Positions 19,515 through 24,136 of a stretch of DNA of 33,370 nt are shown one piece after another. The notes below the pieces were generated by a model. The model did no database searches and was not told the origin of the DNA. It saw only the letters and a program-made list of their open reading frames with translations. Numbering within the stretch: the first letter of the stretch is position 1; every line of letters starts with the position of its first letter. The stretch comes from Magnetococcales bacterium HCHbin5 (GTDB lineage: Bacteria; Pseudomonadota; Magnetococcia; Magnetococcales; Magnetaquicoccaceae): NCBI GenBank assembly GCA_002753505.1, contig PEAG01000039.1, forward strand, positions 1-33,370, written 5' to 3'. The position numbers were made by a program, and so were the translations under genes.

Positions 19515-21158
19515 TTACTGGAAAAAGCCTTTCAAACAGGCAACCATATAGGCCAGCTTCTGTTCCGTCATACCCGGATAGAGACCCACCCAAAAAGTAT
19601 TGTGCATGATCTGATCGGTACAGGCCAGATCCCCCACCACCCGATAACCCTGACCGGTCCGACGCATCTCATCAAAACAGGGATGCTTGAGCAGATTGCC
19701 GGCAAACAACATCCGGGTCTGTATCTTTTTGGCCTCCAAATGGGCAACGATCTGATCCCGTGTAAACCCGGCCCCCTCACGCACCGTCAACAAAAACCCA
19801 AACCAGGAGGGATCCGCATCGGCCGTCGGCTCCGGCAAAATCAACCGGTCGGCCAGATCAGCCAACTCCGTCGTCAAATAATGCCAATTCTGCTGCCGCG
19901 CCCTGGTAAAAGCAGGCAACTTGGCCAGTTGGGCACAACCAATAGCCGCCTGCATCTCCGTGGCCTTCAGATTGTAACCAAAATGCGCATACACATATTT
20001 ATGGTCATACCCCATGGGCAACGCCCCGAACTGCTGGCTGAACCGCTTTTTGCAGGTATTATCCCGCCCGGAGGGACACCAGCAATCCCGCCCCCAATCC
20101 CGAAACGACTCCAGCAACCGCCCCAACAGCGCATCCTGGGTGTAAACAGCCCCCCCCTCCCCCATGGTCATATGATGGGGCGGATAAAAACTGGAAGTCC
20201 CAATATCACCAACCGTGCCCGTATAGTGCCAACGCCCCTCCCAGAAATAGCGGGAACCCAAAGCGTCACAGTTGTCCTCGATCAGCCATAAATTATGCCG
20301 ACGGCAAAACGCCTTGACCTGCGCCAGATCAAACGGATTGCCAAGGGTATGGGCCAGCATGACCGCCTTGGTCCTGGGAGACAACGCCTCCGCCAACAAA
20401 GCGCAATCCACATTGTAAGTCGGCAACGTCACATCGACAAAAACCGGCACCGCCCCATACTGCACGATGGGCGCAACCGTGGTGGGAAAAGCCGCCGCCA
20501 CCGTGATCACCTCATCCCCCGGCAAAATGCGCCGCTCCCCCAACTTGGGCGAAGTGAGTGCCATGAAAGCCAACAGATTGGCCGAAGAGCCGGAATTGAC
20601 CAGTGCCGCACGGCGCACCCCCAAAAATTGGGCCAATTCACGCTCAAAACTCTCCGCATAACGACCAGCCGTCAGCCAGAAATCCAACGCGCTCTCCACC
20701 AGCAGCAACATCTCCTGCGCATCGAACACCCGACCGGCATAACCGATCCGGTCCTGCTCCGGCGTAAAAGGTGCCGTCATGGCTGGTTCATGGATGGCAC
20801 TATAAAAGGCCCGGGTGGTCAACCGGCTCCACTTTCTGAGCATCTCTTCTGTTTTGGCAGCATTCAGACAGCCCACACCCGCCTGAACAAACGCCGACCG
20901 ATGCACCGTCAGCAGGCGGTCCATGCGAAGCTGCCCCGCCTGTGCAAGGGCTCCCCAGGCCAACGCCTCCGGAGCCACAACCACCCCATAATCATCCGCT
21001 ACCGCGGGGTCCGTGACACTGTCCAGGAGGGCAATAATATACTCATCCGGTTGACCGGCCTGGGCGACAATGATGGCGGGCACGGCGGCCGCAACGACCG
21101 CTGCCGTGGTAGAAGATGTGAGCAGAACCAGCTCACCGCTGCGATTGTTGGCTGCCAA
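19515..21158 (-). CDS. rfbH: CDP-4-keto-6-deoxyglucose 3-dehydrase with N-terminal extension
   Basis: 547 residues against the usual about 437. The core from roughly residue 105 on is Rfb[69 protein letters not shown] and [14 protein letters not shown]. The His in PPHH replaces the usual PLP-binding Lys and marks this PMP-dependent dehydratase. The Cys segment carries ligands for its [2Fe-2S] cluster. It removes the C3 hydroxyl of CDP-4-keto-6-deoxyglucose together with a reductase (DdhD/AscD) not found here. The frame begins with TTG at 21158, with AGGGA nine bases upstream. The first 100 residues are Ala/Val-rich and match nothing I know. Starts nearer the core have weaker ribosome sites. 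Confidence 0.9.
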
Positions 21159-21244: not shown

Positions 21245-22561
21245 TCAATAGACCCCCACTGTCTCTGGCAGCACCAAACGATGATTGGACAGATGACTCT
21301 TGACCATCAAAGGAGAAACGCCAAAATAGGTTCCCGCTTCCACAATACGATCCTCATCGGTAAAATCGCCATCCAGGAAAGACTTTACGGCATCGATAGG
21401 CGCAAGAAACTCGGCAGCAAAAGCGCGTTGCACTTTTTGTCGAGCCGTTTTTGTGTTGGTCACTGGCAACCATCGGTCCCCACCCGGGGCTGAAAAATGG
21501 TCCCCCAACCAGCGAGCCAGATTGAACCGTCGCCCAGATAAGCTTTTGTGGCGAAACAGCAAACTGACTTGGCTCCCCCCAACCTCCCGAATAGCCAAAC
21601 TCCATGGTATCCTCGCCGTTGGCGCATGATCGGCTGTCAGGTCCTCCACCTTCAAACCAAACAGATCACACAGGTGCCGATCCTTGATTGGCTCCATCCC
21701 GTTGCCCAAAACGGCGCGCATCTTTCGTGCCAAAGTTCTGCCCCGCTCCCAAGGTTCACAATGCGGCCGATCTGGCCAATCAGCCATGCGCAGCCCTTGG
21801 AGAGCGGAAAAATCACCCATAATGCCCTCGGAATCCATACGCTCTCTGATATTATTCAGGATCAAAGATGCATCCAGACCAGCGCAAGCCGCCGCAACCT
21901 CCACCATCGCGGACTCCCCTGCACCCTTTGACAACTGCAAAAAGTTCTCGATGTATGCAGGTGCGTCATCAGGATCCAACCCCAGAACGGCTTCCAGCTT
22001 GCGATAAGAAGCGAACTGTGAATGGCTGCGTTCCATGCTGACTTCCCGCCAGAGGGTGTGCAACTCCGTATTTTGGATCCCTATGATATCCAGACGGGCC
22101 AAAACCGTCTGGATGAACGACTCCACACTCTCCGCAAACAGACCAACAGGTATGGATTCACGACAACCGGTCAAATATCGAACAGGTTCGTTGCTGTCTT
22201 CAGCAGAAGGCGTACAAACAACGGTGATCGTTTCACCGTCCGATTCAAACCGCAGGTGAGGCCATAAAAATCCGTGACCTGCCCCGCGCATCTCATGTGA
22301 CAGACACCAGTCAACGCCCGGCGTTGTCTCCGGGGTCGGCTCCCAACAGAGCCGCCACCATGAAGAGGCAAACCAGACCGCCAGGGGATAACAGGAGACC
22401 AATACCGTGTCACGCACCGATCTGGCCCTGTCATCATCCACCCGCGTCGCCAACCGATTCTGAATGCGGATTCGCAAGAAGCCGGAGGTCTGTCGGATCT
22501 CCTCCGGACCGTGTTCTGCAGGTGACCATTGTTCAGGCGCAAGTATGAAGGACTCGTTCAT
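21245..22561 (-). CDS. IrrE/ImmA-like protein with altered zinc motif
   Basis: 438 residues. The C-terminal part has the IrrE/ImmA layout: SLLFRHKSLSGRRFNLARWL, then VQRAFAAEFLAPIDAV, then AGTYFGVSPLMVKSHL. In active family members the first segment contains HExxH. Here it reads ARWLGDHF, so the zinc ligands and catalytic Glu are missing and it is probably not a peptidase. The N-terminal 280 residues are not recognised. The ATG at 22561 has AGGA close upstream and overlaps the stop of the preceding small gene by four bases (ATGA). The pair sits between rfbF and rfbH and has no visible link to sugar synthesis. Such overlapping pairs often are toxin-antitoxin or regulatory modules. That is inference only. 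Confidence 0.65.
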   Translation of the reverse strand: MNESFILAPEQWSPAEHGPEEIRQTSGFLRIRIQNRLATRVDDDRARSVRDTVLVSCYPLAVWFASSWWRLCWEPTPETTPGVDWCLSHEMRGAGHGFLWPHLRFESDGETITVVCTPSAEDSNEPVRYLTGCRESIPVGLFAESVESFIQTVLARLDIIGIQNTELHTLWREVSMERSHSQFASYRKLEAVLGLDPDDAPAYIENFLQLSKGAGESAMVEVAAACAGLDASLILNNIRERMDSEGIMGDFSALQGLRMADWPDRPHCEPWERGRTLARKMRAVLGNGMEPIKDRHLCDLFGLKVEDLTADHAPTARIPWSLAIREVGGSQVSLLFRHKSLSGRRFNLARWLGDHFSAPGGDRWLPVTNTKTARQKVQRAFAAEFLAPIDAVKSFLDGDFTDEDRIVEAGTYFGVSPLMVKSHLSNHRLVLPETVGVY

Positions 22562-22992
22562 GATTCCTGCCACCGGTCGAGCACCTCTTGTCGAAAAGGA
22601 TCCCTCTCCGGCATGGGGTATCCGTGGTATGTGCCCAGTCCGGCATTCTCCAACTGGGCTTCCAACGGCACCCCCTGCGCGTTGACAGCCCAAACATTCT
22701 GGGGCCACTCACCCTTTTCCTGGACGCTGACCAAACCCCTCCGTATCCCGGCTTGAAGAAGCTCTGCCTCCTCACTCCGGGTAAAGATTCCTGCGTCATC
22801 ACACAACGCTTTGTCGGGTCTCAAGCTGTTTGGTGGTGTCAAACCAAAATTGCCCGGATTCCGTTTATGCTCCGGGTTGCCACCATAACCACTACGCTCA
22901 GCCAACCTGTTGAGACGTTGCCTCTCCCCGTCATCCTGGGGAGGTGGACGCATTCTCCTTTTGGGGTTAAGGGATTTTCGCTCCAATCTCAT
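22558..22992 (-). CDS. Small protein of unknown function, partner of the IrrE-like protein
   Basis: 144 residues from the ATG at 22992, with AGGA eight bases upstream. The first 70 residues are basic and polar. The rest contains TRSEEAELLQAGI, WAVNAQGVPLEAQLENAGLG and TYHGYPMPERDPFRQEVLDR, a compact alpha/beta pattern. I have the impression that this pattern occurs in small uncharacterised proteins next to IrrE-like genes, but I cannot name the family. No signal peptide or membrane segment is visible. Its stop overlaps the start of the IrrE-like gene, so the two are translationally coupled. A 13-base inverted repeat lies 16 bases upstream of the start and could be an operator. Confidence 0.7.
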   Translation of the reverse strand: MRLERKSLNPKRRMRPPPQDDGERQRLNRLAERSGYGGNPEHKRNPGNFGLTPPNSLRPDKALCDDAGIFTRSEEAELLQAGIRRGLVSVQEKGEWPQNVWAVNAQGVPLEAQLENAGLGTYHGYPMPERDPFRQEVLDRWQES

Positions 22993-23159: not shown

Positions 23160-23930
23160 CTACCAGGTTTTCCAAGGTGCCTTGTTGGAGTCCCAGAGGG
23201 CGTTCAACACCTCTTTGTCGCGCAGTGAGTCCATCGGGTGCCAAAAGTCATGATGATGATAGGCGGAGAGCTCCCCCCCGCGCGCCAACTGCTCCAGGGC
23301 ATCCCGCTCCCAGATGCTGCTGTCCCCCTCGATATAGTCGATCACCTTGGGCGACAGGACAAAAAAACCGCCGTTGATCCAACGCCCATCCCCCTTTGGC
23401 TTTTCTTCAAAGGAGAGCACCTTGTTGCCGGCCATGTTCAAGGCCCCGAAACGCCCCATGGGCTGAACCGCCGTCATGGTGGCCAGGGTGCCGGACTGGC
23501 GATGAAAATCCAGCAACTGCGGGATATTGACGTTGCCCAAACCATCACCGTAGGTAAAACAGAAAGCCTCCTCGTCCGCCACATAACTGCGGACCCGCTT
23601 GAGCCGGCCACCGGTCTGCGTCTTCTCTCCCGTACTGACCAGGGTGACACGCCAAGGCTCCGCCAGACAGCGGTGAACCTCCATGCTGTTACTGGTCATG
23701 TCAAAGGTGACATCGGAACAGTGGAGAAAATAGTTGGAAAAAAACTCCTTGATCATGTAGCCCTTGTAGCCGCAACAGATCACGAACTCATTCAAACCAA
23801 AGGAGGAATAAATTTTCATGATGTGCCACAGGATGGGCATGCCGCCAATCTCCACCAGGGGCTTGGGGCGGAAAGCTGTCTCCTCGCCGATGCGTGTACC
23901 CAAGCCGCCAGCCAGAATGATTACCTTCAC
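23160..23930 (-). CDS. rfbF: Glucose-1-phosphate cytidylyltransferase
   Basis: 256 residues, the normal length. It makes CDP-glucose from glucose 1-phosphate and CTP, the first step of the CDP-3,6-dideoxyhexose pathway. The N terminus VKVIILAGGLGTRIGEET holds the nucleotide-binding motif, followed by FRPKPLVEIGGMPILWHIM, ICCGYKGYMIKEFF, TYGDGLGNVN and FEEKPKGDGRWINGGFFV. These fix the family. The start is GTG at 23930 with AGG at a suitable distance; upstream residues of the longer frame have no family match. It is the first protein gene of the minus-strand locus, 116 bases beyond a tRNA-Ser gene. About 165 bases without a gene separate it from the small-protein/IrrE cassette. Confidence 0.94.
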   Translation of the reverse strand: MKVIILAGGLGTRIGEETAFRPKPLVEIGGMPILWHIMKIYSSFGLNEFVICCGYKGYMIKEFFSNYFLHCSDVTFDMTSNSMEVHRCLAEPWRVTLVSTGEKTQTGGRLKRVRSYVADEEAFCFTYGDGLGNVNIPQLLDFHRQSGTLATMTAVQPMGRFGALNMAGNKVLSFEEKPKGDGRWINGGFFVLSPKVIDYIEGDSSIWERDALEQLARGGELSAYHHHDFWHPMDSLRDKEVLNALWDSNKAPWKTW

Positions 23931-24046: not shown

Positions 24047-24136
24047 TGGCGGAGGAGCAGGGATTCGAACCCTGGGTGGGGTTTCCCCCACAACGATTTT
24101 CGAGACCGTCCCGTTCGACCGCTCCGGAACTCCTCC
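24047..24136 (-). tRNA. tRNA-Ser (anticodon CGA), CCA encoded
   Basis: The minus strand folds as a class II tRNA of 90 bases. The acceptor arm is GGAGGAG/CTCCTCC. The anticodon stem ACGGT/ATCGT closes the loop CTCGAAA, which gives anticodon CGA for UCG serine codons. A long variable arm GTGGGG/CCCCAC follows, then the T arm with GGTTCGAATCC, discriminator G and an encoded CCA. It separates the sugar locus from the gpmI block and could have been an integration site for the locus. Confidence 0.95.

What the first reader, a model, noticed from the sequence alone, without database searches (positions are those of the whole stretch)
21245..22992. Overlapping cassette of a small protein and an IrrE-like protein lacking HExxH, inserted in the rfb operon
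The two genes overlap by ATGA, share no chemistry with the flanking rfbF and rfbH, and have a palindrome before the first start. The IrrE-like protein keeps the AAEFLAP and C-terminal helices but has ARWLGDHF instead of the zinc site. This could be a toxin-antitoxin, anti-phage or regulatory module of undescribed type.
Basis: partly seen in the sequence, partly recalled or inferred. Interest (0 to 1): 0.68.

Follow-up and report, generated by a model that had tools for sequence, protein, structure and literature searches.

The report
Peptidase-dead IrrE antitoxin-like gene pair
Two overlapping genes sitting in a sugar-synthesis operon of a Magnetococcales-type bacterium are a mobile cassette found across many bacterial phyla, most likely a toxin and its antitoxin, in which the antitoxin is built on a DNA-damage protease (IrrE) whose catalytic site has been replaced by other, strictly conserved residues.

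Summary
On the minus strand a 144-aa gene (22558-22992) overlaps by ATGA a 438-aa gene (21245-22561), between rfbF and rfbH. The palindrome is chance. The pair is conserved: 77 of 81 homologous loci found through the large gene, from Magnetococcales to Acidobacteria, Cyanobacteria and Planctomycetes, carry the small gene directly upstream, mostly overlapping by 4 or 8 nt. Neither protein reaches a curated family cut-off. The large protein models well (pLDDT 94.5): its C-terminus matches CapP, PprI and IrrE, and its N-terminus a CDI immunity protein. All four metal-site residues (H, E, H, E) are replaced; R350 and Q375 are invariant in 84 of 84 and D354 is acidic in 81. The small protein weakly resembles CDI and RelE-type toxins. 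One relative pairs the large protein with TumE, a validated toxin family, and relatives with intact HExxH have a similar small partner. The small gene decays while the large stays intact, never the reverse. Best reading: a toxin-antitoxin module of the IrrE-antitoxin kind (RosmerTA, VapBC52), in a new variant with a dead peptidase and an undescribed probable toxin. Toxicity and phage defence are untested.

The parts
22558..22992 (-). small gene P0002, 144 aa, probable toxin; conserved NPKR, YGGNPEHK, CD, EAQLEN, YHGYP
   Evidence: no Pfam/NCBIfam/PADLOC/PHROGs hit; dN/dS 0.08-0.18 among relatives
21245..22561 (-). large gene P0001, 438 aa, probable antitoxin: N-terminal CdiI/Whirly-like domain + degenerate IrrE domain + HTH
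22558..22561 (-). ATGA overlap of start and stop codons
   Evidence: 4-nt or 8-nt overlap in most homologous loci
22103..22558 (-). N-terminal domain (aa 2-153) of the large protein, proposed toxin-neutralising (immunity-like) domain
   Evidence: CdiI of B. dolosa 5ffp_A Z 6.6, rmsd 3.7, 122 of 155 residues
21248..21769 (-). C-terminal IrrE/PprI/CapP-like domain with HTH (aa 265-438)
   Evidence: 7t5t Z 11.4 rmsd 3.3 over 158 residues; 8sln Z 9.2; 3dti Z 9.0
21500..21514 (-). former HExxH site, now R350-W-L-G-D354
   Evidence: R350 84/84, position 354 Asp or Glu 81/84
21428..21442 (-). R374-Q375-K376-V377-Q378; Q375 stands where the third metal ligand (Glu) stands in intact relatives
   Evidence: R374, Q375, Q378 84/84
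23160..23930 (-). flanking rfbF (nucleotidyltransferase), upstream of the cassette
19515..21158 (-). flanking rfbH (DegT/DnrJ aminotransferase), downstream of the cassette

Best explanation
A toxin-antitoxin-like cassette. Shown: two overlapping genes inherited as a unit, spread patchily over many phyla. Inferred: the small protein is the toxin, probably an RNase-like translation poison of RelE/BECR type. Inferred: the large protein binds and silences it through its N-terminal CdiI/Whirly-like domain. Inferred: the C-terminal IrrE-HTH part senses damage or invasion (perhaps ssDNA, as in CapP, PprI and VapB52) or binds the operator. Because all metal ligands are gone, toxin release should not run by IrrE self-cleavage as in VapB52; release by conformational change or by degradation of the antitoxin by another protease is expected.
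For: Pairing: 77 of 81 loci, mostly with 4- or 8-nt overlap; distances of the two proteins correlate, r 0.66 against a permuted maximum of 0.21. Both genes under purifying selection. Mobility: plasmids and many phyla, patchy within the phylum (16 of 299 genomes). Partner swap: R. etli large relative (hhalign 99.2) preceded by TumE PF20126, a validated toxin family (PMC10584680). Structure: the small protein's VIA list is led by a CDI toxin 5t87_E (Z 5.0, 63 residues), then BrnT, RelE and HigB; the large N-terminus matches a CDI immunity protein. Decay: small broken with large intact in 4 of 15 loci found by the small gene (one more cut by a contig end) and in 10 found by the large gene; reverse 0. 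Intact-HExxH relatives have similar small overlapping partners, two of them on plasmids beside VapBC and MazEF.
Against: No toxicity, binding or phage data. The small-protein fold match is weak (Foldseek best E 0.11, VIA Z 5 or below; model pLDDT 78) and may be a common arrangement. The TumE pairing rests on one locus. Four large genes have no small partner (L068, L071, L093, L101), so the large protein may have a use of its own. The large protein is big for a plain antitoxin.
Confidence: 0.62

Rival explanations
1. A regulatory pair without toxicity: the large protein is an IrrE/PrpR-like transcription regulator with a dead peptidase domain, and the small protein is its co-factor or ligand-sensing partner.
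For: C-terminus matches the Mtb transcription regulator (6d2s Z 8.9); DeoR-type HTH hit in one relative; large gene kept when the small one is lost.
Against: TumE and another unrelated gene in the same place; no constant neighbouring target operon; small gene often disrupted; toxin-like fold hints; beside defence and TA genes in several loci.
Confidence: 0.2
2. An anti-phage system in which the large protein senses infection and the small one is a nuclease-like effector that is not toxic on its own.
For: Neighbours include Ssp, Wadjet, Olokun, AbiE, DRT, TIR, SoFic and Dnd/Dpt genes; controls gave mainly kinase-type, Mad-type and MkoA hits and one AriA-type hit.
Against: Many loci have no defence neighbours; enrichment was not tested statistically; no phage data. 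Overlaps with the main explanation.
Confidence: 0.12
3. The reverse polarity: the large protein is the toxin/effector and the small one its antitoxin.
For: Makarova 2009 (PMC2701414) listed COG2856 proteins as predicted toxins; a small upstream gene is a common antitoxin position.
Against: Small gene broken with large intact in 14 loci, never the reverse; ImmA/IrrE-domain partners act as antitoxins in RosmerTA and VapBC52; TumE takes the small gene's place.
Confidence: 0.06

Closest known systems
VapBC52 of M. tuberculosis (PMC13273310, 2026)
   Same: Large multidomain antitoxin with an IrrE/CapP/PrpR-like peptidase domain plus HTH; toxin binding depends on the N-terminal domain; both match CapP 7t5t, IrrE 3dti and 6d2s.
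   Different: VapB52 keeps HEXXH and E245, binds Zn and cuts itself with ssDNA; here all four residues are replaced. The toxin there is a PIN RNase; here an unrelated small protein. The N-terminal domain differs (CdiI/Whirly-like here).
RosmerTA / NetFlax ImmA hub D25 (PMC10440598)
   Same: ImmA/IrrE-domain antitoxin paired with varied toxins, mobile, defence-linked; weak PADLOC RmrA hit E 0.006.
   Different: RmrA is described as carrying a protease domain; the metal site is absent here; the toxin-like family matches no PADLOC model.
TumE-TumA (PMC10584680)
   Same: A relative of the large protein is preceded by a TumE-family toxin.
   Different: The window's small protein is not TumE (hhalign prob 0.2).
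CapP/CapH (CBASS) and PprI/DdrO
   Same: C-terminal fold.
   Different: Those are active proteases that cut a separate repressor (PMC10904395); here no catalytic site and a toxin-like partner.
CDI toxin/immunity pairs (5t87, 5ffp)
   Same: Fold resemblance of the small protein's C-terminal half and of the large N-terminus.
   Different: No secreted carrier; the immunity-like domain is fused to IrrE-HTH; the matches are distant and come from two different CDI systems.

Membership tests
Peptidase M78 / IrrE | HExxH plus third Glu ligand | tested here: not met
   H->R350, E->W/F/L351, H->D354, E->Q375; R350 and Q375 84/84
Peptidase M78 / IrrE | IrrE fold with HTH | tested here: met
   7t5t Z 11.4, 8sln Z 9.2, 3dti Z 9.0
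Peptidase M78 / IrrE | Pfam gathering score | tested here: not met
   14.5 bits against 22
Type II toxin-antitoxin | overlapping two-gene operon inherited as a unit | tested here: met
Type II toxin-antitoxin | one product toxic, the other neutralises it by binding | not testable with these tools
   needs expression and binding assays
Type II toxin-antitoxin | horizontal spread and partner swapping | tested here: met
   many phyla and plasmids; TumE swap at one locus
RosmerTA | ImmA protease-domain antitoxin | tested here: not met
   protease site absent; PADLOC RmrA only E 0.006
RosmerTA | phage protection | not testable with these tools
   no assay
RelE/BECR toxins (small protein) | RelE/barnase-like fold | tested here: inconclusive
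   Foldseek none significant; VIA 5t87_E Z 5.0, RelE/HigB/BrnT Z 2-3
TumE (small protein) | similarity to PF20126 | tested here: not met
   no Pfam hit; hhalign prob 0.2 against the R. etli TumE
VapBC52 | PIN-domain toxin partner | tested here: not met
   no PIN hit in the small protein

The most novel reading that the evidence does not exclude
The erased metalloprotease site has been rebuilt into a conserved R350-D354-Q375 pocket (with invariant R345, R374, Q378, R379) that senses a ligand or DNA and releases a new class of RNase-like toxin by conformational change, without proteolysis.
Probability: 0.3. Interest if true: 0.78.

Novelty: new variant of a known kind. Interest (0 to 1): 0.6.

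Why it matters
An IrrE-type antitoxin was recently shown (VapBC52) to cut itself on ssDNA, which is thought to free the toxin. A widespread group that has lost every catalytic residue, while keeping the replacements fully or nearly invariant, is a natural test of whether proteolysis is needed in such systems. It also adds an unannotated probable toxin family (no Pfam, NCBIfam, PHROGs or PADLOC model) that accompanies most of the relatives found in one scan of 84,980 species.

Tried and rejected
Palindrome as operator: chance. Pfam, NCBIfam, PADLOC and PHROGs for the small protein: nothing. PDB by sequence profile: nothing credible for either protein. Phage records: none for the small protein or its relatives; one IMG/VR contig carries the pair (L103). 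TumE homology of the small protein: rejected. Foldseek for the small model: no significant match. Papers on the 5t87 and 5ffp systems: not found in the library. The careful tree did not finish; the quick tree was used. Rfam: nothing in the window.

Full report
WHAT IS THERE. Both genes are on the minus strand. The small gene runs 22992->22558 (144 aa, P0002) and the large one 22561->21245 (438 aa, P0001), sharing ATGA. They lie between rfbF and rfbH; the genes after rfbH are a dTDP-sugar epimerase and an NAD-epimerase. In sister genome G113 a dehydratase-like gene (rfbG by reading its sequence) sits between rfbF and rfbH. In G065, G089 and G113 the pair and the rfbH homologue lie on different contigs. 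So the pair is a guest in the operon.

THE PAIR ELSEWHERE. A search of 84,980 species genomes with the large protein gave 276 relatives, of which the best 80 loci were fetched, plus one viral contig. In 77 of these 81 loci the small gene lies directly upstream in the same direction, mostly with a 4- or 8-nt overlap. Hosts span Magnetococcales, other Proteobacteria, Acidobacteria, Cyanobacteria, Planctomycetes, Spirochaetes, Armatimonadetes and others. The tree mixes phyla: 12 changes for Pseudomonadota, at least 5 of them forced by supported branches (quick tree). Plasmid copies occur in Massilia, Rhizobium, Sphingomonas and Allorhizobium. Pairwise distances of the two proteins correlate at r 0.66, against a maximum of 0.21 in 2000 permutations. 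dN/dS is 0.08-0.18 for the small gene and 0.09-0.22 for the large.

THE LARGE PROTEIN. The AlphaFold2 model is confident (pLDDT 94.5, pTM 0.92). Residues 265-438 match CapP (Z 11.4, rmsd 3.3, 158 residues), PprI (9.2), IrrE (9.0) and the Mtb regulator 6d2s (8.9). Foldseek puts IrrE first but with a weak E-value (0.097, probability 0.99). Residues 2-153 match a CDI immunity protein, 5ffp_A (Z 6.6, 122 of 155 residues), then Whirly and PUR proteins at Z about 5; at this Z it may be only a common arrangement. Profile alignment with three relatives that keep HExxH places R350 on the first His, W351 on Glu, D354 on the second His and Q375 on the Glu that corresponds to the third ligand. Over 84 sequences R350, Q375, R345, R374, Q378 and R379 are invariant, and position 354 is Asp or Glu in 81. 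Loss of the site with strict conservation of the replacements argues for a re-used pocket, not for neutral decay. This is inference.

THE SMALL PROTEIN. No library knows it. Y36, C64, D65, P97, H123, P126 and D131 are invariant among 69, and H42 and K43 nearly so. The model is moderate (pLDDT 78). No Foldseek hit is significant. The VIA list is headed by a CDI toxin, 5t87_E (Z 5.0, 63 residues), with BrnT, RelE and HigB among the next rows at Z 2-3. That is a hint of a RelE/BECR toxin, no more.

WHICH IS THE TOXIN. Three lines point to the small protein. (a) In R. etli the large protein's relative (hhalign 99.2) is preceded by a TumE-family protein; TumE is an experimentally validated translation toxin (PMC10584680). 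(b) Decay is one-sided. Among the 15 other genomes found through the small gene, it is broken with a full-length large frame in 4, with 1 more cut by a contig end. Ten further loci found through the large gene show the same. The reverse was seen in none. If disabling hits fell by gene length, four in a row on the small gene would have a chance of 0.004. The ten loci are biased, since they were found by the large gene, and most are from metagenome bins. (c) ImmA/IrrE-domain proteins act as antitoxins in RosmerTA (PMC10440598) and VapBC52 (PMC13273310).

THE WIDER FAMILY. Relatives with intact HExxH (L210, L219, L220) have a small overlapping upstream gene that resembles P0002 (hhalign prob 70, E 4e-5). 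The Tistrella/Agrobacterium partner gives prob 97. Two plasmid loci found with the L220 small protein (L226, L227) again show a small gene overlapping an annotated ImmA/IrrE metallo-endopeptidase by 4 nt, near MazEF and VapBC genes. So the dead-peptidase form probably arose within a larger group whose other members can cut. L101 (Pseudorhodoferax) has an unrelated upstream gene and an N-terminal pentapeptide domain.

NEIGHBOURS. Among 276 proteins near 35 loci, PADLOC hits included SspB, Wadjet JetB and JetC, Olokun OloA and OloB, AbiEi, DRT with a DnaG-like partner, TIR, SoFic and PD-T4-2. Among 232 control proteins from a subset of the same genomes the hits shown were kinase-type PD-T4-6, MkoA, Mad-type and one AriA-type. 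Massilia H6 has the pair inside a Dnd/Dpt island with a HipA gene. This suggests defence-island residence for part of the loci; no statistical test was made, and only the first 25 families of each list were displayed.

MECHANISM. Shown: co-inheritance, overlap, mobility, loss of the peptidase site. Inferred: P0002 poisons translation, P0001 holds it through its N-terminal domain, and the IrrE-HTH part senses a signal. Self-cleavage on ssDNA, the event reported for VapB52, is not expected for this group because the ligands are missing, unless another metal site exists.

NOVELTY. The kind (ImmA/IrrE-domain antitoxin with a swappable toxin) is known since RosmerTA. The peptidase-dead subgroup and the toxin-like family were not found described in the libraries searched here, which hold open-licence papers only.

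Noticed in passing
L101 8841-9359 and 9344-11260: Pseudorhodoferax large relative has an N-terminal pentapeptide-repeat domain and an overlapping upstream gene of unknown family with YHGT/FRGT motifs (possibly ADP-ribosyltransferase-like, unproven).
   Followed up: partly
L105 5132-7095: R. etli plasmid: TumE-family toxin upstream of a winged-HTH plus IrrE-like protein; a further possible antitoxin form for TumE.
   Followed up: partly
L219, L220, L210, L226, L227: Overlapping pairs of a GKC...HGYP small protein and an intact-HExxH IrrE protein; an unannotated probable toxin-antitoxin family of its own.
   Followed up: partly
L068 1152-2867: Spirochaete large gene without small partner, beside AAA_21 and RloB genes (possible defence system).
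   Followed up: no
L071 1-612: Desulfobacteraceae large gene without small partner, next to what reads as a DegT-type aminotransferase gene, again possibly a sugar-synthesis locus.
   Followed up: no
L112 and L124 (Pollutimonas bauzanensis): Two diverged copies of the pair in one genome.
   Followed up: no
window 24047-24136: tRNA-Ser (CGA) directly upstream of rfbF, about 1 kb from the cassette.
   Followed up: no
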